A stretch of 64,000 nt of DNA from Oscillospiraceae bacterium MB24-C1 (GTDB taxonomy: Bacteria > Bacillota > Clostridia > Oscillospirales > Ruminococcaceae), in contig CP133187.1 of the NCBI GenBank assembly GCA_030913685.1, positions 2,484,001 to 2,548,000 of the forward strand, written 5' to 3'. Shown here in pieces: positions 33,608 to 52,282 of the stretch. Positions within the stretch are counted from its first letter, which is position 1; the number at the start of each line of letters is the position of its first letter. Under the pieces are notes generated by a model. The model had not been told where the DNA came from, did not search any database, and saw nothing but the letters and a program-made list of their open reading frames with translations. The translations under genes were made by a program, and so were the position numbers.

Positions 33608-33664
33608 CTGTTTTAAGGAGCAAAATAGGATGCCACGGCGTGGAGATACTGCGGTTGGGCGCTG

Positions 33665-35334: not shown

Positions 35335-35457
35335 CATGATGAACAGCAACAGGCCGCCGGTGAAGGCGGCCTGTTTTTGTAACCTGACTTATTGAGAGCG
35401 GCGCGTTGCCGGACATTTTGCCCCACAACTTGGGTAGGAAAAGGCACGTCGGTATGA

Positions 35458-36123: not shown

Positions 36124-36275
36124 CTTTCAATCACCTCCATAGTATTATATGGAAATGACCGCACAAGTGATTTTATTGAGGGGAATTATAAAGCACGCTT
36201 CTATTATAGCGAAACATGTTTACGGTCTGACATATTCTAAAATTAAAAGGCTACCTATAAAACGGTAAGTTTGGC

Positions 36276-36935: not shown

Positions 36936-37321
36936 GGGGATTCCTCCATCTGGTGCCACCGCGCGAAGCGGGCGCGCCTCCCTGCTAAATTGTTGTAAGC
37001 GACGCGTGGCAATATATATCAAAATTTACATCATATTAGCATAAAACACAGCAGAAGGAAAGGGCGGTGCCAATAGCTGTCTGTCGACAGTCTGTCAAAG
37101 CCTAATGCGTTAAAACTGACCATAGAAAGCCACAGGTTACCCATGCTAAGATGTAGGTGTCAGAAATGGCACACAGTAAAAGGGCGGAAGCGCATTAAAA
37201 TTGCGCCCGTCCTTTTGTTGTGCAAAAATGCCTTTCGTGCGGGCGCTTAAACGGCACGATCGCCGCGGCGCAGAGCGGCTGCGCGCTTAAAAGTTAAATC
37301 GACGGCGGGAAAGGGCAAAAA
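36936..37321. other. Junction gap before the capsid block
   Basis: It contains the upstream region of the DUF1275 gene, a short palindrome CTGTCGACAG at 37081, copy 3 of the shared promoter at 37118-37152 and about 165 bases of leader. No integrase, attachment core or repeat matching the other junction at about 26.9 kb was found by eye. Confidence 0.5.
37118..37152 (+). promoter_or_regulatory. Shared phage-block promoter, copy 3
   Basis: GACCATAGAAAGCCAC (37118-37133) is identical to copy 1. After 10 bases come TGC (37144-37146) and TAAGAT (37147-37152). It lies 170 bases before the scaffold gene and would drive the head and tail genes. Confidence 0.72.
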
Positions 37322-40393: not shown

Positions 40394-41671
40394 ATGAAAA
40401 TGGCACAATTGACAGGCGCAGTTATCAATGTTTACAGCGAAAAGACCCTCGCCATTGAGGCGGGAGCCAGAGGCACGGCGGCCATTGCGCTGCCGCTGGA
40501 TTGGTATATGGAAGGCAAGCTCATCACGCTCAACGTCGACGATTCCGCGTTTTTAAAACTCGGGCACATGCTCGACGATATGATCGAAGTGCGTGAAATA
40601 TGTAAGCGCGCTTCCAAGGTGCTGATTTATCCGCTTTGCACTGGCGGCGTGAAGGCGTCGGCAACACTGGGCGAAAACCTGACCGCGACCGCGCTAAAAC
40701 AGGGCGCACGCGGCAACGATGTCAGCGTGGTGGTAGTAAAATCGGGCGAGCTGTGGCAGGTAAAGACCTTTATCGATGGCTGTGTGGCGGACAGCCAGCT
40801 TGTGACGGATGCAGCGGCCTTTAAGCCCAACGATTTTGTCGCCATCAGCGGTACAGGCGCCCTTGCTGCAACCACTGTAAAGCTAACCGGCGGCAGCGAC
40901 GGTGCGGTGGTCGACACGGCGTATGACATCTTTCTCGAAGCGCTCAAGACTGAGGAATTCCAGACCATCGCTTACACCGGTGCCGATGCGGGCATCAAGC
41001 AAAAGCTGGTCGAATATGTCCAGCGACAGCGCGATGACGAGGACAAGTTCATTCAGGCCTGCGTGGGGAATATGCCTGCCGACTACGAGGGCATTATCTC
41101 GTTTGCAAACGGCGTTATTCTAAACGATGGCACCGCGCTGGACGCAAACATGGTCTCGGCGTGGCTGGCGGGCGCAACCGCCGCGGCTGCGGTGAATGAA
41201 TCGCTCACTTACGACAGTTACGACGGCGCGGATAGCGTCACCGAAAAGCTGACCAGATCTCAGCAGCTTGTCTACAAAAATCAGGGTCTGGGTTGTTTTA
41301 TCCTGAACAACGGCAAGGCCAAGGTTGAAAGCGACATCAACACATTGGTGACCTACACGGTGCAAAAGCAGAAGGATTTTTGTAAAAACCGTGTGCTGCG
41401 TGTCATTGATGGAGTTTGCACCGATATCAAGGCGGTGTTTGATTCTTCCTTTGCGGGCGCGGAACACAACAATGCAAACGGGCGCAACCGCTTTAAGGCG
41501 AGCATCTGTGACTATATGACTGCGCTGCAAAATCAGAACGCCATCGAGGAATTTGAATCTGACGACGTGACCGTCGCCGCCGGTGCGGATAAGGACGCTG
41601 TGGTGGTTACCCTGCGCATTAAGCCCGTTGACAGCATGGAAAAGGCGAACATCACCGTTCGCGTGAGATAA
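40394..41671 (+). CDS. Contractile tail sheath protein (XkdK-like)
   Basis: This 425-residue protein shows that the tail is contractile. Sheath features are the N-terminal beta handshake region, the central domain (AATTVKLTGGSDGAVV, YDIFLEALKTEEFQTIAY), and the C-terminal part with QQLVYKNQGLGCFILNNGKAKVESDINTLVTYT, RVIDGVCTDIKAVFD and a final beta strand (DAVVVTLRIKPVDSMEKANITVRV). AAAAGGAGAC precedes ATG AAA ATG; either Met is possible. Length is typical of PBSX-type sheaths. Confidence 0.92.
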   Translation: MKMAQLTGAVINVYSEKTLAIEAGARGTAAIALPLDWYMEGKLITLNVDDSAFLKLGHMLDDMIEVREICKRASKVLIYPLCTGGVKASATLGENLTATALKQGARGNDVSVVVVKSGELWQVKTFIDGCVADSQLVTDAAAFKPNDFVAISGTGALAATTVKLTGGSDGAVVDTAYDIFLEALKTEEFQTIAYTGADAGIKQKLVEYVQRQRDDEDKFIQACVGNMPADYEGIISFANGVILNDGTALDANMVSAWLAGATAAAAVNESLTYDSYDGADSVTEKLTRSQQLVYKNQGLGCFILNNGKAKVESDINTLVTYTVQKQKDFCKNRVLRVIDGVCTDIKAVFDSSFAGAEHNNANGRNRFKASICDYMTALQNQNAIEEFESDDVTVAAGADKDAVVVTLRIKPVDSMEKANITVRVR

Positions 41672-41685
41672 GGGGAGGATAACAC

Positions 41686-42132
41686 ATGGATAAGGTAAAG
41701 CTTTCTAGTATTCCCGCGGGGCACGACGGCAACGGCTATATCACGCTGGACGGCGGCGTGGTGGCGGCGTTTCGCATCGCGAAGATTTCGGCTCAGCTCG
41801 ACGTCACCAAGGAAAGCCGCCGATTTTTGGGTGAGGTGATGACCCAGAACGCCGCCCGCGGCATGGCGGGCAGCGGCAACGTGTCTTATTACCACACGAC
41901 CACCGCGCTTATTGACGCGATGAAAAAGTATCAGAACGGCGACAGCTACCCTGAACTGACGCTGCAATACTACGCCGAAGCACCCGGAAGCAAAGGCCGC
42001 TGCGAGGTGGTGCTGCGCAATGTGGTACTCGATGCGGTGAGCTTTGGCGCACTAGACGATTCTTCCGACGATGCCATGATGAACGAGAGTGCGTTTTCAT
42101 TTGACGATTTCGACATCATTGAGCGGTTCTAG
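41686..42132 (+). CDS. Tail tube protein (XkdM-like)
   Basis: A 148-residue tube subunit, 14 bases after the sheath stop, in the normal order. Diagnostic segments are GYITLDGGVVAAFRIAKISAQLDVTKESRRFLGEVM at the start and SFGALDDSSDDAMMNESAFSFDDFDIIERF at the end. GGGGAGGATAAC precedes the ATG. A terminator follows immediately, so the sheath-tube operon ends here. Confidence 0.9.
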   Translation: MDKVKLSSIPAGHDGNGYITLDGGVVAAFRIAKISAQLDVTKESRRFLGEVMTQNAARGMAGSGNVSYYHTTTALIDAMKKYQNGDSYPELTLQYYAEAPGSKGRCEVVLRNVVLDAVSFGALDDSSDDAMMNESAFSFDDFDIIERF

Positions 42133-42142
42133 AAACAACAGG

Positions 42143-42173
42143 GGGGCGGCTTATTAAAGCCGCCCCTTTTTCT
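42143..42173 (+). terminator. Terminator after the tube gene
   Basis: GGGGCGGCTT pairs with AAGCCGCCCC across ATTA, followed by TTTTT. Confidence 0.9.
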
Positions 42174-42478
42174 ACAGCTCAGGGAAAATAGTTTTTCGAT
42201 ACAATGCGACACACCGCGCGAATAAAGCGTTAAAATTAGGTGAAAAGTGCATTGGTAATTTGCACAGAGGCGCTGCAAAAAGCGTCATAATAAGACAAAA
42301 TTCTGTTTGTTACAACAAGATATGAGCGGCAGTTGAGAGCCGCTCGACAAAATCCGCCATCGCGCGCAAGAGGGTTTGTCCAAAAAGGCGCGCGGGGCAA
42401 GGCTTATTCATCCTATGCAAGAAAATACAAAAATATGCCGCGGGGCTGTATTTTCCGCGGCGAAAGGGGTTATTTTTT
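42174..42478. other. Gap between tube gene and first DUF2577 gene
   Basis: Two small hairpins are visible: GAGCGGC/GCCGCTC near 42325-42346 and CCGCGG/CCGCGG near 42437-42461, just before the next gene. In PBSX-like clusters the tail chaperone gene begins here, but no frame of that kind remains. No shared-box promoter is present. Confidence 0.45.
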
Positions 42479-42832
42479 ATGAATACTATTCGCTTGCTCA
42501 AGCAGATTGCGCGGGACGCCATCCGGACGGAAAGCCCCTGCGATATTATCTACGCCACCTATTTGGGCAATGCGCTGCGCATCGACGCGCTGCCGCTTGA
42601 CCTGCCGCTGGATATGGTGAACATTCCGTCTAAGATGCAGAAGATTGAGGGCAAGATCACCTGTACGCTTAAAGAAGGCGAGGGCGTGGCGATTGAGGGC
42701 AGCGGCGACGTGCGCAGCATTAAGCTGACCGACGTGCCGGTGACTATCACGCTGGAATTAAAGCCCGGCGACCATGTTATTGCGGCGCGGCATGGCGGCG
42801 GGCAGAAGTTCACTATTCTGGATAAGTACTAA
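42479..42832 (+). CDS. DUF2577 (XkdR-like) baseplate-associated protein, copy a
   Basis: A 117-residue protein that, with 51637-51990, forms a pair of DUF2577 paralogues. Shared segments are ALRIDALPLDLPLDM, IPSKMQKIEGKITC and the C-terminal KLTDVPVTITLELKPGDHV...GGGQKFTILDK. In PBSX-type tails this protein is encoded after the hub protein, but here copy a lies directly after the tube and before the FYEDN array. Its exact role in baseplate assembly is not established. AAAGGGGTTATTTTTT precedes the ATG. Confidence 0.8.
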   Translation: MNTIRLLKQIARDAIRTESPCDIIYATYLGNALRIDALPLDLPLDMVNIPSKMQKIEGKITCTLKEGEGVAIEGSGDVRSIKLTDVPVTITLELKPGDHVIAARHGGGQKFTILDKY

Positions 42833-42865
42833 GGGCGGAATATGCACAGGGCGGTTTTATGCAAA

Positions 42866-42897
42866 CGAAAAACGCACAGGTTGCCCTGTGCGTTTTA
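42866..42897. terminator. Terminator between copy a of DUF2577 and FYEDN-1
   Basis: AAACGCACAGG pairs with CCTGTGCGTTTT. It lies between convergent genes and can serve both. Confidence 0.8.
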
Positions 42898-42905
42898 TAT
42901 GCGTA

Positions 42906-43139
42906 TTAGCCGAAGATGCCTTTCTTTTTAGGCTCCTCTTCAACGTAGGGGGTGTAGGGCTGGTTGTCTTCGTAGAAGATGGTATAACAAATTATCACGC
43001 TACCAGCATTGGACATGATAATATTTTTGATACTATCATACCCTACTTGAGCAATGAATTCTTCAATAGGAGATAGTTCTTTACGCTGATTATCATACAA
43101 ACGATTGGAATTCATTTGAAAAACTTTAATTCGTATCAC
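42906..43139 (-). CDS. FYEDN family protein 1
   Basis: A 77-residue protein and first member of a seven-gene minus-strand family in this tail cluster. Family plan: a first beta strand (IRIKVFQ), a charged helix ending IEEFIAQVGYDSIKNI, then a strand with TIFYEDN. This member ends with an extra tail (PKKKGIFG) shared with member 2. The GTG start has TAGGAGG 8 bases upstream, and TATTAT with an upstream TTTTTC at 17 bases may be its promoter. No known domain is recognised; a loose resemblance to short sporulation proteins such as Cse60 is only a guess. It points away from the decayed 18-codon frame at 43197. Confidence 0.75.
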   Translation of the reverse strand: MIRIKVFQMNSNRLYDNQRKELSPIEEFIAQVGYDSIKNIIMSNAGSVIICYTIFYEDNQPYTPYVEEEPKKKGIFG

Positions 43140-43196
43140 AATAAAGTCCTCCTAGAGTTTTCCTTAATAATAACATAAAGGAGTGGCAAGAAAAAG

Positions 43197-43255
43197 GTGG
43201 AAAATCAACAAGCTGCTGTCTTGCAGGCGGACGAGCTGATCGATACGGAGAAGTA
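43197..43255 (+). pseudogene. Remnant frame diverging from FYEDN-1
   Basis: A GTG preceded by AAGGAGTGG opens only 18 codons (VENQQAAVLQADELIDTEK, then stop). It occupies the place where other FYEDN genes face a divergent plus-strand gene, and it resembles the opening of the tape-measure-like gene at 43680 (VLQPDELMKE). It is probably the stub of a deleted copy. Confidence 0.35.
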
Positions 43256-43312
43256 AACAGGGTAAAGGCGCGCTGGCATAACCCACCGCCTGTGGGGCAG
43301 GGCGGCTTTAGG

Positions 43313-43346
43313 CAAACAAAAAGCGCACAGGACAGCCCTGTGCGTT
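43313..43346. terminator. Terminator after FYEDN-2
   Basis: AAAAGCGCACAGG pairs with CCTGTGCGTTTTT. It is nearly the same element as at 42866, showing that gene and terminator were duplicated together. Confidence 0.8.
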
Positions 43347-43359
43347 TTTAAGATGCGTA

Positions 43360-43617
43360 TTAGCCGAAGATGCCTTTCTTTTTGGCGGCGTCCGTTTTAG
43401 TGCGTGGGGTGTAGGGCTGGCCGTCTTCGTAGAAGAAAGAATAACAGGAGTAAGAGCTATTGGGGCCCGAAACGATAATATTTTTAATATTTTCATAACC
43501 AATTTCAGCAATAAATTCTTCAACTTTTTCTATTTCATTGGCACTTAAATCTGCGTAATTAGACGAGGTCTTAGAAGCTATATCCGAGTTTATTTGAATA
43601 ACTTTCAAACGTATCAC
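43360..43617 (-). CDS. FYEDN family protein 2
   Basis: An 85-residue family member. It has the strand IRLKVIQI, the helix EKVEEFIAEIGYENIKNI and the strand SFFYEDG, and ends in KKKGIFG as member 1 does. GTG at 43617 is the start, with GGGAGGG 7 bases upstream; an ATG frame reaching 43656 is longer but lies before the ribosome binding site. A weak promoter (TTTCAC, 17 bases, TATTAT) lies in the 62-base gap it shares with the divergent gene at 43680. Confidence 0.75.
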   Translation of the reverse strand: MIRLKVIQINSDIASKTSSNYADLSANEIEKVEEFIAEIGYENIKNIIVSGPNSSYSCYSFFYEDGQPYTPRTKTDAAKKKGIFG

Positions 43618-43679
43618 AATATTACCCTCCCAAGTTTTTCTTAAATAATAACACATAATTGAAAGAGGTGAAAGACAAT

Positions 43680-44759
43680 ATGGATAAAACTAGTGTTTTG
43701 CAGCCTGATGAGTTAATGAAAGAGGTTGCAAAGCAAGGTGGAGCCATTGCGGGGTTGCTTAATAATCAGTGGACAACCCTGCAATTGCTTGATGGCACAC
43801 TGCTGATGTCTTTCGGGATGCATAGTCAGCTTTTTGCAGCTATGTTGGGTGAGCTTGCACTGCAAAATAGCTTTGCCAGTGCGCAGTTGGGCGAACAGCA
43901 GCTTTACGATGCGGCTGCGTTAGAAGGCGCGTCTGCAATGTATCTGCTAACGAGTACACTTTCGGGTAATGTAGACAGGATGACAGGGTATCTGCTCAGA
44001 ATGATGAATTTTAGTGAAACGACTAACGAAAGCATTGGGCAAGTGTTGCCGTTGCTAAAGGAAATGAGAGAATCCAGTGGAATTAACGATGCAGCCAACA
44101 CGGCATTTGGTGGTATTGGGGCAATGTCAAGTGTAGGAGATGCTATCCAAAAATCTAACATTGGTGGGGTTGGAACTGCTCTTAAAACTTTTGGTGGCGC
44201 CGCTGGAATTATGGGTAAACTTGGTGCGCTTGCTCCGCTGCTTACCTCTGCTGCGCCGTTACTGGTTGGCGGTCTGGCGGTGGCGGGCATTGGTACAATC
44301 GCGTATAAAGCTTATAAAAACCATAAGGCAAAAAAAGAGGAAGAAAAGAAGGAAGAGGAAGCTCGAACTAATGTAGCAAACCCCCTGACCGGCGTGGAAG
44401 ATGAGGTGGATACCGGACAGGCGAGAGCTCAGGTTCAAGTTGATACTACACAGGCTCTAGTAGACCCCTTTAACACAGGGCAGGGTGAAGATTCAGCCTA
44501 CAACAAGTATCAAGGCCAAATTGAAAGTAGCCAAAAGACAGCTGACACCCTGCGCGAAGCGGTCAGAACTGGCAATATCGACGTAGCGGCGCAGCTTGGC
44601 GCGGTGGCAGATGCTCTCCAAAGGCTGGCTGAAAAACCCGCTGATCGCAACGTGAAAAGTGAGATTGTCATCAACACGCTGAAAACCAACACGACGCTCT
44701 CGGAGTTTAAGGAAATGTTCATCGAAACGTTGGTTCGCGATCTGGAAACAGTGGAGTAA
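43680..44759 (+). CDS. Short tape-measure-like protein a
   Basis: A 359-residue protein not assigned to a family. The N-terminal 160 residues are helical. Residues about 183-205 form a Gly/Ala/Leu-rich hydrophobic segment (LLVGGLAVAGIGTIAYKAY), followed by a highly charged stretch, a variable linker, and a conserved C-terminus (NVKSEIVINTLKTN, FKEMFIETLVRDLETVE). A central hydrophobic zone and this kind of C-terminus are seen in phage tape measure proteins, but those are usually longer. The canonical tape-measure slot at 47.6 kb is empty. A second, 5'-truncated copy lies at 45736-46242. GAGGTGAAAGACAAT precedes the ATG. Confidence 0.55.
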   Translation: MDKTSVLQPDELMKEVAKQGGAIAGLLNNQWTTLQLLDGTLLMSFGMHSQLFAAMLGELALQNSFASAQLGEQQLYDAAALEGASAMYLLTSTLSGNVDRMTGYLLRMMNFSETTNESIGQVLPLLKEMRESSGINDAANTAFGGIGAMSSVGDAIQKSNIGGVGTALKTFGGAAGIMGKLGALAPLLTSAAPLLVGGLAVAGIGTIAYKAYKNHKAKKEEEKKEEEARTNVANPLTGVEDEVDTGQARAQVQVDTTQALVDPFNTGQGEDSAYNKYQGQIESSQKTADTLREAVRTGNIDVAAQLGAVADALQRLAEKPADRNVKSEIVINTLKTNTTLSEFKEMFIETLVRDLETVE

Positions 44760-44763
44760 AAGC

Positions 44764-44797
44764 AAAACCGCAGGAATTCACCCTACGGTTTATCTTT
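44764..44797. terminator. Terminator between tape-measure-like gene a and FYEDN-3
   Basis: AAACCGCAGG pairs imperfectly with CCTACGGTTT, followed by ATCTTTATTT. The same element recurs at 46247-46279. Confidence 0.7.
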
Positions 44798-44799
44798 AT

Positions 44800-45063
44800 T
44801 TACCTGCAGCCTTGACCATTGTCTTCGTAGAAAATGGTATATATTAAACAATAAATGTCACCAGATGTTGTTATTTTACGTACGTTTTCAAAACCAATTT
44901 CGGATATAAACTCCTCGATAAGGGTATATTCTTCTTCACGTCTGGCCAGTTTTTTTTGATACTTGGCCTTGCCTTTTTCGCTTTGGTCGTTTCTAGCTGC
45001 TATTTCGGCAGAAGGAAAATCAAAAAGGTCTGGGCTAATTTTAAAAACTTTCATTCTTATCAT
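44800..45063 (-). CDS. FYEDN family protein 3
   Basis: An 87-residue family member: strand IRMKVFKI, Lys/Glu-rich helix, LIEEFISEIGFENVRKI and IYTIFYEDNGQG. ATG at 45063 follows GGAGGTTTTTAGT; the longer frame to 45120 is upstream of its own promoter. It is the partner of member 5 in a tandem duplication, but the two have diverged strongly in the first half. Confidence 0.78.
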   Translation of the reverse strand: MIRMKVFKISPDLFDFPSAEIAARNDQSEKGKAKYQKKLARREEEYTLIEEFISEIGFENVRKITTSGDIYCLIYTIFYEDNGQGCR

Positions 45064-45091
45064 ACTAAAAACCTCCGCTATGTTTTTTATC

Positions 45092-45120
45092 ATTCTAGCA
45101 CCAAAGGAAAAGGTTGGCAA
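45092..45120 (-). promoter_or_regulatory. Sigma-A promoter of FYEDN-3
   Basis: Read on the minus strand: TTGCCA, 17 bases, TAGAAT, followed closely by the GGAGG site. Confidence 0.75.
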
Positions 45121-45140
45121 TGAACGCGGGGGACAACATC

Positions 45141-45173
45141 AAAAAAGGGGGAGCGCAATGTCGTTCCCCCTTG
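45141..45173. terminator. Terminator between FYEDN-4 and the FYEDN-3 promoter
   Basis: AAGGGGGA pairs with TCCCCCTT around GCGCAATGTCGT. It isolates the two minus-strand cassettes. It recurs at 46628-46663. Confidence 0.7.
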
Positions 45174-45188
45174 GCGCGCAGGATGAAA

Positions 45189-45449
45189 TCACCCCGGCAG
45201 GTTGTCCTCGTAGAAAATCGTGTAGGTCATAATGCCCTCGCCACCGGGCGCGACAGCGATTTTGCGAATGTTCTCAAAGCCCACCACGGCGATGAATGCC
45301 TCGACAGGTGCCATTTCTTTTTTGCGCTGCTCGAGCTTTTGAGCATAGCGTTCCTTGCCCCTTGGCATGTTGCCGCTTTTTAAAAGCTCGTCGTAGTTTG
45401 TCAGATCAAATACCTTGAGGTTTAAGAGAAAAAGCTGCATTCTAACCAT
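45189..45449 (-). CDS. FYEDN family protein 4
   Basis: An 86-residue member: VRMQLFLLNLKVFDL, a basic helix with GKERYAQKLEQRKKEMAPVE, AFIAVVGFENIRKI and TYTIFYEDNLPG. Its protein is identical to member 6, although they lie 1,486 bases apart. ATG at 45449 follows GGAGGGATTTTGAC; the longer frame to 45500 overlaps its promoter. Confidence 0.8.
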   Translation of the reverse strand: MVRMQLFLLNLKVFDLTNYDELLKSGNMPRGKERYAQKLEQRKKEMAPVEAFIAVVGFENIRKIAVAPGGEGIMTYTIFYEDNLPG

Positions 45450-45471
45450 GTCAAAATCCCTCCACGATAAA

Positions 45472-45500
45472 ATTTTACCACATATTAGAAAATTCTTCAA
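45472..45500 (-). promoter_or_regulatory. Sigma-A promoter of FYEDN-4
   Basis: Read on the minus strand: TTGAAG, 17 bases, TAAAAT. The same promoter recurs at 46958-46986. Confidence 0.78.
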
Positions 45501-45538
45501 ATATTTCGAAAAAATCCAACTTAAAAGGAGTAAAAATT

Positions 45539-45874
45539 ATGAAAAATCTCGAAGGATTCTTAAACCCCAAGAAGAAACCAAACCTGCGCTTTATCCTCTC
45601 GGAGGATTTTGTCGGCGAGGATGGTGCGCCCCTCGTGTGGGAGATGCGCACCCTTTCGGCACGCGAGCTTTGCGAGGTGCGCGGCTACTACGAGGGTCGC
45701 GGGCAGGAGGAAACAACCCTCGCTCTGCTGCACCATTACTGGTTGGCGGTCTGGCGGTGGCGGGTATCGGCACAATGGCTTACAAGGCGTATAAAAACCA
45801 TAAGGCAAAAAAAGAGGCCGAAGCGGCCAATGATACTCTCTCCGAAAAATCAATTATGGACCCAGTTGCCTTAG
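45539..45874 (+). pseudogene. Truncated tail assembly chaperone copy
   Basis: The first 64 codons are nearly identical to the chaperone gene at 47025 (MKNLEGFLNPKKKPN onward), including its AAAAGGAG site. At about 45728-45735 the sequence switches, across a shared TCTGCTG, to a copy of the tape-measure-like gene in another frame. The reading frame then continues for about 47 unrelated residues. It is a recombination product and unlikely to be a working chaperone. Confidence 0.75.
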
Positions 45875-46242
45875 AAAATATGGAGAACATGCCCAGCAGA
45901 ACGCCTTCGCTGCCAGCTAGAGAGCCTATTACCGAGCGGTCTATTATGGACCCTATTGCCTCAGGCAACATGGATGACATGTTTAATAACAGACAGGCAA
46001 GTAGCTTGGACAAAGGACAGATGACAGCAGCGGATGCCATGCGGGAAGACAGGGGGGACAGCAAGCTGATCGCCCAGCTTAGCGAGCTGACCGACGTAAT
46101 GCGCAGAGTAGCCGACAAACCCGCTGATCGCAACGTGAAAAGCGAGATTGTCATCAATACGCTTAAAACCCACGCGACGCTCTCGGAGTTTAAGGAAATG
46201 TTTATCGAAACGTTGATGCGTGATCTAGAAACAGTGGAGTAA
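45736..46242 (+). pseudogene. 5'-truncated copy of the tape-measure-like gene
   Basis: From the junction onward, this matches the C-terminal 168 residues of the gene at 43680: the hydrophobic segment (APLLVGGLAVAGIG), the charged stretch (KNHKAKKEAE) and the C-terminus (NVKSEIVINTLKTH, FKEMFIETLMRDLETVE). The linker between them differs almost completely and carries two SIMDP motifs. It has no start of its own; the 275-residue open frame reaching back to 45415 passes through the reverse of FYEDN-4 and is accidental. Confidence 0.7.
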
Positions 46243-46246
46243 AGCA

Positions 46247-46279
46247 AAACCGCAGGAATTCACCCTACGGTTTATCTTT
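46247..46279. terminator. Terminator before FYEDN-5 (convergent)
   Basis: A copy of the element at 44764: AAACCGCAGG with CCTACGGTTT, then ATCTTTATTT. Confidence 0.7.
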
Positions 46280-46281
46280 AT

Positions 46282-46548
46282 TTATCTGCGGCCTTGACCA
46301 TTGTCTTCGTAGAAGATGGTGTAAGCTAAATAATAGGGACTACCCGTTGAGGTGATTATGCTTCGTACATTTTCAAAACCAATCTCAGCTATAAAATTTT
46401 CTATGGGAGCTAACTCTTTTTCGTGTTTTTCTAATTCTTTCTTGTATTTTGCTATACCTTTTTCGCTTTGATCTTCTCTTGAATTTTGATCAATATAAGC
46501 CATATCAAATTTTCCTGGGTCAATCTTAAATATTTTCATTCGTATCAT
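46282..46548 (-). CDS. FYEDN family protein 5
   Basis: An 88-residue member: IRMKIFKIDPGKFDM, EDQSEKGIAKYKKELEKHEKEL, IENFIAEIGFENVRSI and AYTIFYEDNGQG. It is the duplicate of member 3; ends are conserved and the middle differs at many positions. ATG at 46548 follows GGAGGTTTTTGGT. Confidence 0.78.
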   Translation of the reverse strand: MIRMKIFKIDPGKFDMAYIDQNSREDQSEKGIAKYKKELEKHEKELAPIENFIAEIGFENVRSIITSTGSPYYLAYTIFYEDNGQGRR

Positions 46549-46576
46549 ACCAAAAACCTCCGCTATGTTTTTTATC

Positions 46577-46605
46577 ATTCTAGCACCAAAGGAAAAGGTT
46601 GGCAA
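46577..46605 (-). promoter_or_regulatory. Sigma-A promoter of FYEDN-5
   Basis: TTGCCA, 17 bases, TAGAAT on the minus strand; identical to the promoter of FYEDN-3. Confidence 0.75.
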
Positions 46606-46627
46606 TAAACGCGGGGGAGCAACATTA

Positions 46628-46663
46628 AAAAGGGGGAGCGGCAATGTCGTTCCCCCTTGGTGC
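46628..46663. terminator. Terminator between FYEDN-6 and the FYEDN-5 promoter
   Basis: AAGGGGGA pairs with TCCCCCTT around GCGGCAATGTCGT, as at 45141. Confidence 0.7.
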
Positions 46664-46674
46664 GCCGAGATCAA

Positions 46675-46935
46675 TTAACCCGGTAGGTTATCCTCGTAGA
46701 AAATGGTGTAGGTCATAATGCCCTCGCCACCGGGCGCGACAGCGATTTTGCGAATGTTCTCAAAGCCCACCACGGCGATGAATGCCTCGACAGGTGCCAT
46801 TTCTTTTTTGCGCTGCTCGAGCTTTTGAGCATAGCGTTCCTTGCCCCTTGGCATGTTGCCGCTTTTTAAAAGCTCGTCGTAGTTTGTCAGATCAAATACC
46901 TTGAGGTTTAAGAGAAAAAGCTGCATTCTAACCAT
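46675..46935 (-). CDS. FYEDN family protein 6
   Basis: An 86-residue protein identical to member 4. ATG at 46935 follows GGAGGGATTTTGAC. It diverges from the intact tail chaperone gene at 47025, as member 4 diverges from the truncated one. Confidence 0.8.
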   Translation of the reverse strand: MVRMQLFLLNLKVFDLTNYDELLKSGNMPRGKERYAQKLEQRKKEMAPVEAFIAVVGFENIRKIAVAPGGEGIMTYTIFYEDNLPG

Positions 46936-46957
46936 GTCAAAATCCCTCCACGATAAA

Positions 46958-46986
46958 ATTTTACCACATATTAGAAAATTCTTCAA
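46958..46986 (-). promoter_or_regulatory. Sigma-A promoter of FYEDN-6
   Basis: TTGAAG, 17 bases, TAAAAT on the minus strand, identical to that of FYEDN-4. Confidence 0.78.
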
Positions 46987-47024
46987 ATATTTTGAAAAAA
47001 TCCAACTTAAAAGGAGTAAAAATT

Positions 47025-47423
47025 ATGAAAAATCTCGAAGGATTCTTAAACCCCAAGAAGAAACCAAACCTGCGCTTTATCCTCTCGGAGGATTTTGTCG
47101 GCGAGGATGGTGCGCCCCTCGTGTGGGAGATGCGCACCCTTTCGGCACGCGAGCTTTGCGAGGTGCGCGGCTACTACGAGGGTCGCGGGCAGGAGGAAAC
47201 AACCCTCGCTCTGCTGGCTAAAAGCATGGTCACCCCGAATTTGAGCGACGCTGAGCTGCTGCGCGGCCTTTCGCAGAAGGAGGGGAGAACCATCCTCGAC
47301 CCGTGCGAGGCGATAAAATCGCTGCTGGATGCGGCGCAGCTAGGGGTGCTGTTGGCCTGCTACTTTAAGCATCAGCAGGTCAATAACTTTAATGAGCTGG
47401 TAGATGAAGCAAAAAACTCCTAA
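47025..47423 (+). CDS. Tail assembly chaperone (XkdN-like, gpG-type)
   Basis: A 132-residue chaperone that would coat the tape measure during tail assembly. Typical features are KKPNLRFILSEDF, the acidic PLVWEMRTLSARE and SKMVTPN-like LAKSMVTPNLSDAELLRGL, followed by a helical end. AAAAGGAG precedes the ATG. The last codons read GCA AAA AAC TCC TAA, so an A AAA AAC slippery site lies right before the stop, and the -1 frame continues without a stop into the 55-codon frame at 47441. A long form of 194 residues is therefore likely, as with gpG/gpGT of lambda and E/E' of P2. Confidence 0.87.
   Translation: MKNLEGFLNPKKKPNLRFILSEDFVGEDGAPLVWEMRTLSARELCEVRGYYEGRGQEETTLALLAKSMVTPNLSDAELLRGLSQKEGRTILDPCEAIKSLLDAAQLGVLLACYFKHQQVNNFNELVDEAKNS
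47411..47417 (+). other. Programmed -1 ribosomal frameshift site
   Basis: A AAA AAC is in the proper frame register at the end of the chaperone gene. After slipping, the ribosome reads LLRRGGDD and then the 55-codon extension. A G+C-rich stretch just downstream (GGCGGGGCGGCGACG) could slow the ribosome. Confidence 0.75.
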
Positions 47424-47440
47424 GGCGGGGCGGCGACGAT

Positions 47441-47608
47441 ATGAGCTATCGCGCCTACCTCGCCTTTTCAAGACACGGCATTCTCCCGCATGAATTTATG
47501 GCGCTCCCCTGCGAGGAACAAGCCTTTTTGCTCGCCTGCGACCTCACCGAACAGGACGAACGGCGCGAAGATGCCGAACGAACCCGCAGACGGATGCGGC
47601 GGCGCTGA
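47441..47608 (+). CDS. Chaperone -1 frame extension (gpT-like)
   Basis: A 55-residue frame (MSYRAYLAFSRHG, then ALPCEEQAFLLACDL and a basic end). Short second-frame segments of this kind with a Phe-x-x-Leu-Pro/Glu-Glu-Gln-Ala-Phe pattern follow tail chaperones in many Firmicutes phages. It has no ribosome binding site of its own and is best read as the frameshift extension. The tape-measure gene should come next, but only a 250-base gap without a gene lies before 47859. Confidence 0.75.
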   Translation: MSYRAYLAFSRHGILPHEFMALPCEEQAFLLACDLTEQDERREDAERTRRRMRRR

Positions 47609-47858
47609 GTTTTTGCTTTGCGGTCGCAGAAAGTCCAGCGGATGTTGAAAACCGAACCATTCGACAAAATGTTGCCTAAACATTCGCCGAAATGCGAGGA
47701 TTTTCGCAAAAAGCGGACAGGCTGTGGCACTATAACAAGTTGAAAACTGATGCGTTCGACGCCGCTCGACACCCCGCGCGGCGGTAAAAACACGCAAAAC
47801 AGTTTTAAGCGACCTAATACGTCAAAAAAGCGATTCCACAACAAAAGGAGGTCAAAAA

Positions 47859-48566
47859 ATGGCTTACGAAATATACTTAGGCGGTTGCGCGCTCTACGGC
47901 GTCAGCTCGGTGGAAGAATCGGTCGCGCGCAACGTCACCGAGCACGATGCCATCGGTTCCGGCGTTTTTACCATGCCGAAAAATGCGGGGCTTAAAAGTT
48001 GGAATATCAAGCTGGAGCTGACACAGCAAAATCTCGGGCAAGAGGGCTGGCGCAAGGCCTCCGTGGTGCTCGAAGACCTGCGCGACATGCTCAACGATAA
48101 AAACGGTCAGCGGCTGGTCATCGTGTCCGACCAGCAAAAGCTTTCAAAACTGGCGTTGCTGCGGGATATTAAATATGAAACCAGCTATCAGGGCATCTAT
48201 TCGGTAAGCCTTTCGCTGGTGGAGTATGTCAAGGCGCGGGTGAAATCATCTGGCGTGCCAAGCGTCACCCGCCCCGGTACACGCCCTAAAGCACCGGACA
48301 AATTTAAGGCTTTGAGCGCATATGATGAGCTGGCGGGTAAAAAGACTTTTGAAGTGCCAGATTCCAGTATAGAGTATCCTGTTCTCGAACCAAGCGGCAC
48401 AAAGCCTGAAAATCTTGCTGGACTTAAGGATGACGCTATTGTTAGGGTTATCAAAGGGGATTCCAATAGCGCGTTCATCACCGAGCAGCAGAAGGAAGAG
48501 GCCGCCATAACCGGTGTCATGGTCAGTGCTTATGAAGATTTTGATAATAGTATGGGCTCGGAATAA
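47859..48566 (+). CDS. XkdP-like tail/baseplate protein lacking a clear LysM
   Basis: A 235-residue protein at the place of XkdP, after the chaperone and before the hub. The first 150 residues form a beta-rich domain (YEIYLGGCALYGVSSVEESV, VVLEDLRDMLNDKNGQ, YQGIYSVSLSLVEYVKARV). XkdP proteins usually end in a LysM domain; here the last 80 residues show no GDTLW-type motif and are acidic instead. AAAAGGAGGTC precedes the ATG. The frame is intact. Confidence 0.65.
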   Translation: MAYEIYLGGCALYGVSSVEESVARNVTEHDAIGSGVFTMPKNAGLKSWNIKLELTQQNLGQEGWRKASVVLEDLRDMLNDKNGQRLVIVSDQQKLSKLALLRDIKYETSYQGIYSVSLSLVEYVKARVKSSGVPSVTRPGTRPKAPDKFKALSAYDELAGKKTFEVPDSSIEYPVLEPSGTKPENLAGLKDDAIVRVIKGDSNSAFITEQQKEEAAITGVMVSAYEDFDNSMGSE

Positions 48567-48642
48567 CAGCCCCCAAGGGAAATGCCCGGCTCGCATGTGC
48601 GGGTCGGGCTTTTTTCACATAACAAATTAAGGAGGAATAAAC

Positions 48643-49581
48643 ATGCTTTTAGTCAATAATCTTGACGTTTCTCAGGTGGTATATAGCGCAAGCTGGGTTG
48701 AAGAGCTAAACGGTGGACCTTCCACGCTGGATTTTTCACTCCCTGCTGCGCAGACGGCGAAGTTTTCTGTCGGTGATAAGGTCATCTTCACCTACGAAGG
48801 TACCAAGCTGTTCTATGGATTCCTGTTCAAGGTGGACAGAGGGTCGGACCAGGCCAGCTGCACCGCCTATGATCAGCTGCGCTATCTCAAGGCCGAAGCG
48901 CCGCTGATGCGCCAAAACGAGACGCTCTCCGATTTTGTCGCGCGGGTGCTTGCACAGGCGGGGGACAGAATTCGCATCGGTGAAGTGGCCAACACCGGTG
49001 TGAAGCTGTCGCAAAAGCTGTTCGAGAGCGGCAGCTATCTCAATATGCTCTATAATTCTATCGACGAAACTCGGAATTTAAATGGCTGCCGCTATATGCT
49101 GCGAGACGAGTTCGGAGCGGTGGCGCTGCGCGATTTATATGATCTGCGCACCGGAATTGTTGTGGGAGACGGCAGCCTTGCCACCGATTATCGCTATGGC
49201 CTCGCCATTGGGGATAACGCCTGCAACTACGTCAAGGTGGCTAAAAGCAGTAGCGAAGAAGGGCTTAAAAGCGCTATCATTGCGCAGAATGCCGACCTGA
49301 TCGCCAAGTGGGGCAAGCTGGTGGCGTTTAAGACGGTGTCAAATGGCAACGCTGCGCAGATGAAAAGCCTTGCACAAAGCATTTTGGACGAGCGCGGCAA
49401 GGAAAGCGAGACTCTCTCGGTCGATTGCATCGGTGACCTGCGGCTGAGGGCGGGGTGCGAGGTGCGTTTGGATATCGCACAGGCGGGCTTAGATTTTCGC
49501 GTGCTGATTACCCGCGCCAATCACAGCTTTTCGGGCGCGGAACACACTATGAAGCTGACGATTCAGCGCAGCGAGTGGTAA
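48643..49581 (+). CDS. Baseplate hub protein (XkdQ-like)
   Basis: A 312-residue protein of the XkdQ/late-control-D type, which forms the hub that connects tube to spike. Segments include SWVEELNGGPSTLDFSLPA, VIFTYEGTKLFYGFLFKVDR, YDQLRYLKAEAPLM, QKLFESGSYLNMLYNSIDE and the end NHSFSGAEHTMKLTIQR. AAGGAGGAATAAAC precedes the ATG. It is the last ordinary tail gene before the remnant region. Confidence 0.82.
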   Translation: MLLVNNLDVSQVVYSASWVEELNGGPSTLDFSLPAAQTAKFSVGDKVIFTYEGTKLFYGFLFKVDRGSDQASCTAYDQLRYLKAEAPLMRQNETLSDFVARVLAQAGDRIRIGEVANTGVKLSQKLFESGSYLNMLYNSIDETRNLNGCRYMLRDEFGAVALRDLYDLRTGIVVGDGSLATDYRYGLAIGDNACNYVKVAKSSSEEGLKSAIIAQNADLIAKWGKLVAFKTVSNGNAAQMKSLAQSILDERGKESETLSVDCIGDLRLRAGCEVRLDIAQAGLDFRVLITRANHSFSGAEHTMKLTIQRSEW

Positions 49582-49601
49582 CAGTCTATTCCCAAACAGA
49601 T

Positions 49602-49743
49602 TAAAGTTTTTGATCGAACTTTTTCAAAAGTTTGCAGGGCGCGGGACAGCGTCCCGTCGTGTCCATACCCATAAAAAAGCGCAGGAGGGGAGGAGAAACG
49701 GTCTGGGAGACCGTTTTACCGTGGGGAATCCCCGCTAGGGGTT
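49602..49743. repeat. MITE-like intergenic repeat
   Basis: TTTTTGATCGAACTTTTTC followed by a G+C-rich GGGACAGCGTCCC hairpin, then further inverted pieces (CGGTCTGGGAGACCG; GGGGAATCCCC). The opening resembles a dispersed non-coding repeat I associate with Oscillospiraceae genomes. It ends where the chaperone remnant begins, so it may have replaced that gene's 5' end. Confidence 0.5.
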
Positions 49744-49746
49744 CCC

Positions 49747-50087
49747 CAATTTGTGGATGACGCGGGTAACCCACTGGAATGGGAGCTGCGCCAATTGACC
49801 GCCACCGAGGGCGCGGAGCTGGCAAGGGAAAACGCGAGCAACATCCGGATGCTGACCACCATGGTAGCACATGCTTTGGTAAAACCGAACTTGCGCAACG
49901 CTGAGTTTCTCTATGCGCTCTCTCAGCAGCGCGGTAGAACGTTTTTGACCCCGCCGAGGCGTTGACCGCCCTCGTCACCGACAGTGAGCTGGCACGGCTG
50001 ATTCTGCTCTATGAGCTGCACAATACTGTGGAGACGCAGGCGGCAAAGCCGGAGGAGACCCAGCCCGAGGAAGTTGCGGCGCAGTAG
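49747..50087 (+). pseudogene. Decayed third tail chaperone copy
   Basis: FVDDAGNPLEWELRQLTATEGAEL through PNLRNAEFLYALSQQRGRTFLTP aligns with the chaperone at 47025. The start and about 25 codons are missing. A one-base frameshift near 49953 separates the second part (EALTALVTDSELARLILLYELHNTVE). It differs much more from the intact gene than the 45539 copy does, so it is from an older or different phage. Confidence 0.75.
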
Positions 50088-50097
50088 AAAAAATGAA

Positions 50098-50125
50098 AAA
50101 CCGCCCGTGGTTGTGCGGGCGGTGG
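50098..50125. terminator. Terminator between chaperone remnant and FYEDN-7
   Basis: ACCGCCCG pairs with CGGGCGGT across TGGTTGTG, between convergent genes. Confidence 0.65.
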
Positions 50126-50138
50126 GGGACGATGTAAA

Positions 50139-50486
50139 TTATTTAAGCTTTGTTGCGCAATGGGGGCAATAGTCAAACGTATAAGCTACGTCGTTGTTGC
50201 AACTGGGGCATTTGAGCGGTTCATCAACGCTGGGGTCCATTTTGTGGGCACAGTTGGGACAAAACGAAAAGGTATTGGAAATGTGGTGGCCGCATTTTGG
50301 GCAGGCGTAGATGTTCTCGTCTTCGTAGAAAATGACGTAACCTGACATGCCGTTTGGAACAGGGATGCCAACTACGTGTTTGATATTTTCACTCTTTATC
50401 TCGTTTAGGTAAGGAAGAACGAGATCGTTAATCTTTTGTATGGAATGCCAACCGGTAAGGAATGAAATTTCTTGGCACAAAATCAC
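50139..50486 (-). CDS. FYEDN family protein 7 with two zinc ribbons
   Basis: A 115-residue protein. The first 55 residues follow the family plan but are diverged (INDLVLPYLNEIKSENIKHV, GYVIFYEDEN). Fused to it are two four-Cys zinc ribbons (CPKCGHH...FCPNCAHK and CPSCNND...YCPHCATK). The GTG start follows GAGGTGATTTAA. It diverges from the tape-measure-like gene b with a 64-base gap. The ribbons would let this member bind nucleic acid or protein. Confidence 0.75.
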   Translation of the reverse strand: MILCQEISFLTGWHSIQKINDLVLPYLNEIKSENIKHVVGIPVPNGMSGYVIFYEDENIYACPKCGHHISNTFSFCPNCAHKMDPSVDEPLKCPSCNNDVAYTFDYCPHCATKLK

Positions 50487-50504
50487 TTAAATCACCTCAA
50501 ATTT

Positions 50505-50533
50505 ATTATGGTATAGAAAATTTAAAAAAACAA
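50505..50533 (-). promoter_or_regulatory. Sigma-A promoter of FYEDN-7
   Basis: TTGTTT, 17 bases, CATAAT on the minus strand. Confidence 0.6.
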
Positions 50534-50550
50534 CGGAAAGGAAGAAAAAT

Positions 50551-51609
50551 ATGGAATATAATTTGAGCCAAACCTTTGAAGATAGCCGAAAGGCTGTCGA
50601 TGACTATCTTAAATATATTTTATGTCAGAGTAGTGAACAACGGGAAAAGGCAGATTATTCATTGAATTCGCTCATGGATAGTGTCAATGCAGTGGGCACG
50701 GTGGCGGCTATGGCAGCCAAGGAATCTATGGTGTCGCATAACAGCACCTTTCAAATGCTACATGCGATAAACGAAGCGCAAGGAGCATTGATGGATCTTG
50801 TCATTGATTTTCGGTTAAACGGTGGTACTGGCGGTGGAGGTATATCTGATGGAGTTTCTAAAGCATCTTCTTTGGTCACTCTTGTAAATTCTACTAATCC
50901 GCTGGTTAAGGCGGCAGCAGTTGTAACCGGACTGTTTGGCTCCAAATTAGATGGAAGTGAAGAGATGAAGCGAGCTGAACTTAATCAGTACAATTCATTG
51001 ACCAACAAAGCAATAAGGGCTAAAGAGAATGCCGGAAAGCTTGTTGGCGAAATAAATTACAGTATCAACCCCATGCCAAATCCTGCCACCAACGGCCCGG
51101 CCCCTTTGATGAATGGGAATTTGTATAGTATTTTGCCATTTATAGGGAGTGACGCTGATGCTGCGGCATTGATAGAACCACTAAAAGAAGGATACCAAGC
51201 TGCCGCTGAGGCTAAAGCAGCACATACACCAATGGCAATTTTACGCAGAAAGGCAGAGGAAGCGGCGAAGATGATAGAGCGTGAAATTGACAATGCAGGG
51301 AAAGAGCTAAAAGGCGCTTATGAAGCACGCATGCAGATCCCCAACCCCTCCACAGGAGCTGATGAATCCACGCAAATCTACAACATGCAAACCCATATCG
51401 CCACCATGCAGCCACAATCAGTACAGGTCGTCGCGCAACCCGCATCAACCAGTGTTGCGCCTGAACAGAACATCAATCTAAATATCAACAACGAGTTTAA
51501 GGGTATTCCGCAAAGCAAGAGCGAGCTTAATAATATCGGCGAATATCTTGCCCAACAGATATGTGACAAACTAAACTCCGGCGCGATGCTACTCTCTAAC
51601 AACTGGTAA
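50551..51609 (+). CDS. Short tape-measure-like protein b
   Basis: A 352-residue protein, not assigned. The N-terminal 90 residues are helical, a Gly-rich turn (NGGTGGGGISDG) leads to a mildly hydrophobic segment (LVKAAAVVTGLFG), then long helices rich in Ala/Glu (EGYQAAAEAKAAHTP, KAEEAAKMIEREIDNAGKEL). The end has repeated Asn/Ile strands and a helix (NINLNINNEFKGIP, IGEYLAQQICDKL), a pattern common at phage tape-measure C-termini. It is not similar in sequence to protein a but has the same plan and the same divergent FYEDN neighbour. AAAGGAAG precedes the ATG. Confidence 0.5.
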   Translation: MEYNLSQTFEDSRKAVDDYLKYILCQSSEQREKADYSLNSLMDSVNAVGTVAAMAAKESMVSHNSTFQMLHAINEAQGALMDLVIDFRLNGGTGGGGISDGVSKASSLVTLVNSTNPLVKAAAVVTGLFGSKLDGSEEMKRAELNQYNSLTNKAIRAKENAGKLVGEINYSINPMPNPATNGPAPLMNGNLYSILPFIGSDADAAALIEPLKEGYQAAAEAKAAHTPMAILRRKAEEAAKMIEREIDNAGKELKGAYEARMQIPNPSTGADESTQIYNMQTHIATMQPQSVQVVAQPASTSVAPEQNINLNINNEFKGIPQSKSELNNIGEYLAQQICDKLNSGAMLLSNNW

Positions 51610-51636
51610 CCCAACAAACGAAAGGAAGGCCTTAAA

Positions 51637-51990
51637 ATGGACCTGTTTACAGCAATTCGCGACGTTGTGCACGAGATATTGCGAGTCGAACCGCTAACGC
51701 GGGTACAGTACGGCACCTACACCGGCACGGTTATGCGCATCGACGCGCTGCCGCTCGACATCCCAATGGATATGATCGAGATTCCCCCGTCGCTTCAAAC
51801 GATTGAGGCGACGATAAGCTGCGAGCTGACCGAAGGTCAGGGGGTCGAAATTACCGGCACCGGCACCGTGCGCAAAATCAAGCTGACCGACGTACCGGTG
51901 ACGATTACGCGCGGCCTAAAGCCGGGCGATAAGGTCACACTGCTGCGGCACTGCGGCGGGCAACGGTTTTCCGTGCTCGATAAAATCTGA
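51637..51990 (+). CDS. DUF2577 (XkdR-like) protein, copy b
   Basis: A 117-residue paralogue of 42479-42832, with MRIDALPLDIPMDMIEIP, ATISCELTEGQGV and KLTDVPVTITRGLKPGDKV...CGGQRFSVLDK. AAAGGAAGG precedes the ATG. In PBSX-type order it follows the hub protein. The genes that should come next (XkdS/T/U wedge proteins and fibre) are absent; only about 290 bases without a gene separate it from the lysin. Confidence 0.82.
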   Translation: MDLFTAIRDVVHEILRVEPLTRVQYGTYTGTVMRIDALPLDIPMDMIEIPPSLQTIEATISCELTEGQGVEITGTGTVRKIKLTDVPVTITRGLKPGDKVTLLRHCGGQRFSVLDKI

Positions 51991-52282
51991 GGGTGGCAAA
52001 AATCCGGCGCGCGGCGGCTTGTTTTAACAAGCAGATCATTTACATAAGGCGGAGGGACTCGACTCCGTCAGCGGGCGCGGACTCTTCGCCTTTTTGCGTC
52101 AATTTGAATGTACTTAGGGTTGATAAACTTTCCGCCGGGTGGGATAAGCCGCCGCTTTGGCTCATAAGCTTTAAAGACAAGCGCGTTCAAATGCGCCTCA
52201 AACGCAAAATTCAGGATAACATTTTAAGCGCCGCACGCTGTTCATCCACGGCTGCGGTGGCTTGCAAGAAAGGAAGAAAGTG

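What the first reader, a model, noticed from the sequence alone, without database searches (positions are those of the whole stretch)
42906..50486. Array of seven paralogous minus-strand 'FYEDN' cassettes inside a contractile-tail cluster
Seen: seven small proteins (77-115 residues) on the minus strand share a first strand (IRMKVF-like), a helix ending (I/V)E-x-F-I-x-E-(I/V)-G-(F/Y)-x-N-(I/V) and a strand TIFYED(N/G). All run against the tail genes. At least five have a promoter with a 17-bp spacer and -35/-10 close to consensus, and most end in their own hairpin. Known: genes with private promoter and terminator inside phage late operons are called morons and often serve the host (defence, superinfection exclusion, immunity). 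Inferred: this is a family of moron-like cassettes that have multiplied and diversified within one tail region. I do not recognise the family. One could be cognate to each neighbouring tape-measure-like or chaperone gene.
Basis: partly seen in the sequence, partly recalled or inferred. Interest (0 to 1): 0.82.

Follow-up and report, generated by a model that had tools for sequence, protein, structure and literature searches.

The report
Antisense gene cassettes in phage tails
A decayed virus in a bacterial chromosome carries seven small, self-contained genes written backwards among its tail genes; relatives carry one to thirteen such genes at the same tail position, which fits a set of proteins that protect the host cell from rival viruses, though this function is untested.

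Summary
Seven intact minus-strand genes (77-115 aa) at 42906-50486 share one domain, here called FYED, and run against a contractile-tail module. All seven end in a hairpin terminator. The promoter claim is weaker than stated: four have a near-consensus promoter with a 17-nt spacer, and they are two duplicated pairs. Two of the seven proteins are identical. No curated family covers the domain. Relatives were found in six other places. In five (a viral contig and prophages of three other genera, one Angelakisella massiliensis prophage with 13 copies) they again run antisense beside the tail-assembly-chaperone gene, with a short tape-measure-like gene seen in four. The sixth is a lone chromosomal gene. 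Related prophages have the slot empty. Paralogues are mostly old and under purifying selection, arrays expanded locally, and in Angelakisella a variable FYED domain recombines with a constant double zinc ribbon. HK97 keeps its exclusion moron gp15 in the same slot, but FYED is neither homologous to it nor membrane-bound. Most likely these are lysogen-expressed cytoplasmic morons that block related phages by binding the tape-measure/chaperone complex, as Tab acts on a tape measure. The anatomy is shown; the function is inferred.

The parts
42906..43139 (-). FYED cassette a, 77 aa, GTG start, own terminator
43360..43617 (-). FYED cassette b, 85 aa, GTG start, own terminator; its -10-like site lies next to the start of the tape-measure-like gene 43659
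44800..45063 (-). FYED cassette c (allele A), 87 aa, promoter-like TTGCCA-17-TAGAAT and own terminator
45189..45449 (-). FYED cassette d, 86 aa, promoter-like TTGAAG-17-TAAAAT and own terminator
46282..46548 (-). FYED cassette c (allele B), 88 aa, near-orthologue of the (frameshifted) copy at L017 1663
46675..46935 (-). second copy of cassette d, identical protein (pS 0.07)
50139..50486 (-). FYED domain plus C-terminal double zinc ribbon, 115 aa, terminator at 50123-50100
43659..44759 (+). short tape-measure-like protein (366 aa); identity inferred from position
   Evidence: no Pfam family above cut-off
45539..45874 (+). broken tail assembly chaperone: first 64 codons, then out of frame into the tape-measure remnant
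45724..46242 (+). headless C-terminal part of a second tape-measure-like gene
47025..47423 (+). intact XkdN-like tail assembly chaperone
47441..47608 (+). candidate T part of the chaperone (frameshift product)
   Evidence: 87% identical to the same place in L017; role recalled from other phages
49690..50084 (+). third, frameshifted chaperone remnant
50551..51609 (+). short tape-measure-like protein (352 aa); inferred from position
   Evidence: no tape-measure family matched
40394..42132 (+). tail sheath (PF04984/PF17482) and tail tube (PF09393) genes that define the contractile tail module

Best explanation
The cassettes are lysogen-expressed morons of a new small-protein family (FYED domain, with or without a zinc ribbon). 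They sit at the tail-assembly-chaperone/tape-measure (TAC-TMP) slot of contractile-tailed prophages of one bacterial family. Shown here: the family, its antisense orientation, its recurrence at this slot, its cassette structure, old and locally amplified copies under purifying selection, and empty sites in relatives. Inferred: they are transcribed in the lysogen from their own promoters while the tail operon is silent. The proteins, which look soluble, then bind the TMP or TAC of a related superinfecting phage (or of leaky self expression) and stop tail assembly or DNA delivery, as Tab stops tail assembly through a TMP. Amplification and N-domain variation would let one prophage cover several TMP types.
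For: Antisense beside TAC in five other elements: L017, G010/L018, G008/L058, Angelakisella/L080 and, at a contig edge with no TMP in view, G373/L081. Own terminators, and promoter-like sites jointly above shuffles; near perfect in all five genes of the larger G010 array (TTGACA-17-TATACT, p 0.003 each). Purifying selection: pN below pS in all 13 G010 pairs and in all 11 window/L017 pairs compared; pN did not exceed pS in 109 of 110 Angelakisella domain comparisons. Local expansion: the 11 Angelakisella copies in the tree form one clade (92/93) and each G010 array its own (97/94 and 90/89). All seven FYED ORFs are open although two TAC copies and one TMP copy beside them are broken. Against L017, capsid, tube, DUF2577 and TAC are 93-96% identical and sheath 87%, but the TMP N-terminal part is 50% and FYED a, b and c-A are 49-68%. 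HK97 has its moron gp15 between a frameshifted pair of tail genes (TAC, recalled) and the TMP gene. Tab, an 83-aa prophage moron, targets TMP and blocks tail assembly (PMC10884400; passages and part of the Results). The seven window proteins have no membrane-like segment (maximum 19-residue hydropathy 0.43-1.33, against 2.43 for gp15).
Against: No expression or infection data. Homology to Tab was not tested, and none to gp15 was found (hhalign 0.5%). No PADLOC family matched below E 0.015. Promoters are not convincing one by one outside the c type, the larger G010 array and G008: p 0.05-0.36 for the other window genes and the smaller G010 array, 0.09-0.83 for three of four L017 genes. Four of four same-genus genomes lack FYED. 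Three complete short TMP ORFs (314, 203, 257 aa) lack FYED neighbours, so a short TMP does not require FYED. The co-divergence of TMP and FYED rests on one pair of elements and may only reflect one recombination block. In Angelakisella the 13 genes lie in close succession, by eye mostly without a promoter each (no promoter scan was run there), and TMP precedes TAC. One relative (G015) lies outside any phage, judged by eye. One L017 copy is frameshifted.
Confidence: 0.42

Rival explanations
1. FYED proteins serve the prophage's own tail: they are inhibitors or chaperones of the neighbouring short TMP, keeping leaky TMP from damaging the lysogen's membrane, so each TMP module keeps its own.
For: Constant place beside TMP or TAC; divergence together with the TMP N-terminus in one comparison; the -10-like site of cassette b lies beside the TMP start.
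Against: Relatives have a short TMP and no FYED (L055, L082, L101). 13 copies stand beside one TMP in Angelakisella. FYED genes stay open where a TMP copy is broken.
Confidence: 0.18
2. They are anti-defence proteins (such as inhibitors of CRISPR or other host immunity) amplified in an arms race.
For: Small, diverse, multi-copy, prophage-borne; the antisense promoters would allow expression apart from late genes. A PDB profile search put AcrVA4 among its weak rows (E 0.4), which is not evidence by itself.
Against: Anti-defence genes need no place beside TMP; no significant match to a known inhibitor was found.
Confidence: 0.14
3. They are host-benefit genes unrelated to phage biology (for example a small stress or sporulation-type protein) that use the tail slot as a safe harbour.
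For: A solitary relative with a promoter-like site (p 0.05) and a strong terminator-like hairpin sits among what look like transport and rnf genes in G015. Viral structure matches include proteins named Cse60 and DUF4177, all weak (E 0.08 or more).
Against: No sequence link to Cse60 (PF10957 finds nothing in this genome; hhalign 4.9% with 60 shuffles up to 5.7%). Only one non-phage copy was found, against six tail-linked elements counting the window.
Confidence: 0.14
4. Selfish or neutral amplification: tandem duplications in a decaying prophage, kept by chance.
For: A recent 1.48-kb duplication in the window; TMP 5' stumps between copies of the larger G010 array point to repeated duplication.
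Against: Synonymous divergence is mostly high while amino-acid change is low, so most copies are old and kept by selection; 7 of 7 window copies are open; arrays formed separately at the same slot.
Confidence: 0.08

Closest known systems
HK97 gp15 moron (superinfection exclusion, known to me from its paper's title in the reference lists shown)
   Same: Small moron followed by a terminator, placed between a -1 frameshifted pair of tail genes (TAC, recalled) and the TMP gene gp16.
   Different: Same strand as the tail genes, single copy, 62 aa with a strong membrane segment (hydropathy 2.43); no sequence similarity to FYED.
Tab, tail assembly blocker of Pseudomonas phage JBD26 (PMC10884400)
   Same: Protein of 83 aa expressed from the prophage, classed as a moron, with its own promoter; targets TMP.
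   Different: Lies between the terminase genes and has an anti-Tab partner; sequence relation to FYED not tested.
Tai tail assembly interference systems (PMC11364771)
   Same: Prophage moron proteins acting on tail proteins (passages).
   Different: Mostly upstream of the packaging module, with a counter-defence gene in phi80; targets include the central tail fibre.
HK97 gp23 'reverse moron'
   Same: A moron on the opposite strand inside a tail operon with its own terminator.
   Different: Single copy, between the I and J homologues; not compared in sequence.
Cse60 (PF10957) and DUF4177 small proteins
   Same: Similar order of strand, helix, strand, strand (recalled for Cse60); weak structure matches.
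   Different: No significant sequence or structure score.

Membership tests
Phage moron | Own promoter | tested here: met
   By consensus only: five window regions jointly above all 300 shuffles; singly clear for the 44800/46282 type and for all five genes of the larger G010 array; not clear for 42906, 43360 and 50139
Phage moron | Own terminator | tested here: met
   Hairpin then T after 7 of 7 stop codons by eye; fold z -1.7 to -6.7
Phage moron | Absent at the same site in related phages | tested here: met
   L082: TAC 14035-14439, then a 203-aa TMP-like gene starting at 14587; L055 and L101 likewise; no FYED match in these loci
Phage moron | Expressed from the prophage | not testable with these tools
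   No transcript data
HK97 gp15 superinfection-exclusion family | Place between TAC and TMP | tested here: met
   in Angelakisella also between them but with TMP first
HK97 gp15 superinfection-exclusion family | Membrane segment | tested here: not met
   19-residue hydropathy 0.43-1.33 in the seven window proteins against 2.43 for gp15
HK97 gp15 superinfection-exclusion family | Sequence homology | tested here: not met
   hhalign probability 0.5%
Tab tail assembly blocker | Small prophage moron protein of similar size (Tab 83 aa) | tested here: met
   77-115 aa in the window; Tab size
Tab tail assembly blocker | Targets TMP and blocks tail assembly | not testable with these tools
   Needs an experiment
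Tab tail assembly blocker | Sequence homology to Tab | not tested
   Tab sequence was not fetched
Cse60 (PF10957) | Match to the Pfam model | tested here: not met
   No match in this genome at E up to 10; hhalign with one Cse60-like protein 4.9%, 60 shuffles up to 5.7%
Cse60/DUF4177-like fold | Structural match | tested here: inconclusive
   Model pLDDT 78; best viral Foldseek E 0.024, best PDB E 0.29; second look Z up to 4.5 with NikR and 4.1 with an ACT domain
Double zinc ribbon (PF12773) | Curated score in the protein at 50139 | tested here: met
   34.7 bits against a cut-off of 27.3

The most novel reading that the evidence does not exclude
Contractile-tailed prophages of this bacterial family carry, antisense in the tail operon, a recombining immunity repertoire: arrays of up to 13 paralogues in which a variable FYED recognition domain is shuffled against a constant double zinc ribbon, kept and expanded independently at each tape-measure module to neutralise many different rival tails.
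Probability: 0.28. Interest if true: 0.82.

Novelty: new variant of a known kind. Interest (0 to 1): 0.6.

Why it matters
The slot between tail chaperone and tape measure already holds one known exclusion gene in HK97. Finding it filled by antisense, amplified, recombining arrays in Gram-positive prophages suggests a hotspot for proteins that act on tape measures. If the N-domain sets specificity, the arrays would be a compact, natural panel for working out how small proteins recognise tape-measure proteins, and a rare case of a prophage-encoded diversified repertoire.

Tried and rejected
Curated family assignment: apart from zinc ribbons, no match to Pfam, NCBIfam or PHROGs below E 0.001 and none to PADLOC below 0.015. 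Rows such as RuBisCO_activase_AAA_helical (best E 0.0034) and DUF659 (0.018), in 3 of 19 members each, were taken as chance.

Cse60: first thought of from memory, not supported by sequence; the viral structure search lists Cse60 and DUF4177 names only at E 0.08 or more.

Solved-structure sequence search: best E 0.014, through the zinc ribbon; AcrVA4 at E 0.4 not followed. Foldseek gave no row below E 0.001; the second look gave Z up to 4.5, a middling value that the tool calls common. The second model (ma94758ed3038) was not searched.

Phage and plasmid collections: no relative of three FYED proteins or of two short TMPs in the phage collection (one row of E 0.7 in a microvirus capsid gene dropped), and none of one FYED protein in the plasmid collection.

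Short TMP as the cause: my first count (7 FYED-linked against 19 others, no overlap) had missed short TMPs without FYED. With L055, L082 and L101 added the lengths overlap (U 21, p 0.002, rows not independent). Left out of both counts: L054 (broken TMP), L105 and the TAC remnant in L057 (no TMP seen), L078 (TMP cut by the locus end), L081 (contig edge) and L038 (TMP cut by the piece held).

Invertible switch: one inverted pair of 25 nt at 76% in 42000-52500, so not favoured. Silent donor cassettes (pilin type): not favoured because the copies are open, with ribosome-binding sites and, in the window and G010, terminators.

Viral contig L107 proved a chance match. A weak hit at L057 5377-5574 (E 0.005) and one in G643 (E 0.00096 within a 968-aa frame) were not counted. 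Row L085 (Micromonospora, zinc-ribbon part only) was not followed.

Literature: five narrow full-text searches, seen as listings only (1 paper, 102: 0, 103: 0, 116: 1, 117: 0), showed no description of such arrays; they cannot exclude one, as most subscription papers are not held.
Full report
WHAT IS THERE. The window (G000:C1:2484001-2548000 of a 2.95-Mb, single-contig genome) holds a prophage remnant from about 37.2 to 53 kb: scaffold (PF06810), capsid (recognised by eye; no Pfam match), tail terminator (PF20765), sheath, tube, two DUF2577-type genes, XkdN-like chaperone (TAC), YqbQ-like protein and a GH25 lysin. Two short tape-measure-like genes (366 and 352 aa) and a headless third are named so from their place and, in part, their C-termini, not from a family match. 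Of the seven ORFs scanned upstream (29292-37022), two (34774-35334, 35482-36240) have no Pfam match and five are of cellular type, so no terminase or portal was recognised there. Two TAC copies (45539, 49690) and one TMP copy (45724-46242) are broken.

THE SEVEN GENES. All seven minus-strand ORFs are open, share one domain and are the only places matched in the genome. Two are identical proteins in a 1.48-kb tandem duplication. Within that duplication the d copies are nearly identical (pS 0.07), whereas the two c copies differ strongly (pN 0.23, pS 0.69); the copy at 46282 is a near-orthologue of an L017 copy (pS 0.13). So the second unit looks like an exchange with a related phage rather than a plain copy; this is inference. 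Terminators follow 7 of 7. Promoter-like sites are close to consensus for four genes (two types) and the five non-duplicate regions are jointly better than 300 shuffles, though singly only the c type is.

RELATIVES. A profile of 19 members found FYED in 3 of 396 genomes of the host's family (own, G010, G015), 2 of 394 of its order (own plus one weak row) and 1 of 398 of its phylum (own). Four of four other genomes of the host's genus had none. Searching by the neighbouring TAC found more: 25 of 396 family genomes have a TAC relative, at 34 places. FYED genes lie beside TAC at 8 of these 34 places, in 5 of the 25 genomes (own, G008, G010, G167, G373, of four genera). G008, G167 and G373 had been missed by the FYED profile, so its counts are lower bounds. 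In viral contigs L017 and L108, which matches the G008 prophage at 100%, were found. G167 is Angelakisella massiliensis (NZ_LT629944.1; NCBI Oscillospiraceae); G373 is of the same genus. Window FYED without zinc ribbons matches the Angelakisella N-domains by hhalign at 95.4% (E 1.8e-8), while 40 column-shuffled controls reached at most 2.3%.

PLACE. In G010 three copies lie between TAC and a 422-aa TMP and five between TAC and a 398-aa TMP. In G008 one copy lies between TAC and a 331-aa TMP, with baseplate-type genes downstream by eye. In Angelakisella the order is tube, 352-aa TMP, 13 antisense FYED-plus-zinc-ribbon genes, TAC. In L017 one zinc-ribbon copy lies between TAC and a 338-aa TMP, and others before and after a second TMP. 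In G373 a copy lies beside TAC at a contig end and no TMP is in view. In the window the zinc-ribbon copy lies between a TAC remnant and a TMP, b lies just before a TMP, a lies beside b, and the c and d pairs lie between a TMP or its remnant and a TAC. All are antisense to the tail genes. Empty sites occur: L082, of the same genus as the host, has TAC and then a 203-aa TMP-like gene starting 148 bases after it. All 7 complete FYED-linked TMPs are 331-422 aa. Of 22 complete TMP ORFs without FYED, 19 are 465-1027 and 3 are 314, 203 and 257 aa, so short TMPs do not require FYED.

EVOLUTION. G010 paralogues: pN 0.06-0.22 against pS 0.36-0.82 in 13 pairs. Angelakisella (11 of 13 copies; two whose starts I had not fixed were left out): mean pN 0.44 in the N-domain and 0.20 in the ribbon, with mean pS 0.71 and 0.72; pN exceeds pS in 1 of 55 N-domain pairs and 0 of 55 ribbon pairs. 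So most are old genes under purifying selection with a faster N-domain; positive selection is not shown. Domains have been shuffled: copies 7928 and 9958 share nearly the same ribbon (pS 0.08) but not the N-domain (pS 0.83), while 7928 and 11009 share the N-domain (pS 0.23) but not the ribbon (pS 0.77). A tree of 32 domains puts the 11 Angelakisella copies in one clade (92/93) and each G010 array in its own (97/94, 90/89); only 2 of 29 inner branches pass the strict mark and several rows are long, so deeper order is unsure. In the larger G010 array all four gaps between copies hold stumps of the TMP 5' end, which suggests that the duplicated unit included the cassette/TMP border.

HOW IT MAY WORK. 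Proteins without a membrane-like segment and with promoters facing against the late operon fit expression in the lysogen. The slot is that of HK97 gp15 (its TAC neighbours are annotated only as tail proteins, and the TAC name is recalled). Tab shows that a protein of this size can block tail assembly through TMP (PMC10884400; passages and part of the Results seen). SNIPE, a membrane-bound nuclease, also interacts with tape measures (PMC13190303, passages). Against L017, the TMP N-terminal part is 50% and FYED a, b and c-A are 49-68% identical, while capsid, tube, DUF2577, TAC, d and c-B are 92-96%, sheath 87% and three small head-tail genes 74-81%. The zinc-ribbon copy is 27% to that of L017, and TMP 50551 has no match there, but these may not be orthologous pairs. 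This is what co-adaptation would give, but also what exchanged blocks would give. I therefore rate the moron reading as strong, the anti-phage role as likely, and the TMP/TAC target as the best guess.

FOLD. AlphaFold2 gives strand, helix, strand, strand (mean pLDDT 78, pTM 0.60), and the same order in the zinc-ribbon form (82, 0.48). No known structure matches clearly.

LIMITS. One environmental contig and a few genomes, no expression data, TMP identity by position, promoters by consensus, and many gene names in relatives read by eye.

Noticed in passing
window 37226-37319: GP20-a RNA (RF02991, 64 bits) directly upstream of the phage scaffold gene.
   Followed up: no
window 45539-46242: The first 64 codons of a TAC are joined out of frame to the C-terminal part of a TMP gene.
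   Followed up: partly
window 42479-42832 and 51637-51990: Two DUF2577-type genes (53% identical), and three TAC and three TMP copies in one prophage remnant: the tail module itself seems to have been duplicated in part.
   Followed up: partly
L102 2402-3235: A 277-aa ORF whose N-terminus looks like a zinc ribbon lies, on the tail strand, between TAC and a 727-aa TMP: another insertion in the same slot.
   Followed up: no
L056 5464-5775: A 103-aa antisense ORF with a membrane-like segment (hydropathy 2.58) between XkdP- and XkdQ-like genes (named by eye) of another tail module.
   Followed up: no
L035 9351-9563: A solitary FYED relative with a promoter-like site and terminator among what look like transporter and rnf genes, with no phage genes recognised around it.
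   Followed up: partly
L018 12260-13563: Decayed stumps of the TMP 5' end in all four gaps of the five-gene array.
   Followed up: yes
L054 6368-8242: A second, broken TAC-TMP remnant of the same tail type elsewhere in the host genome, without FYED.
   Followed up: partly
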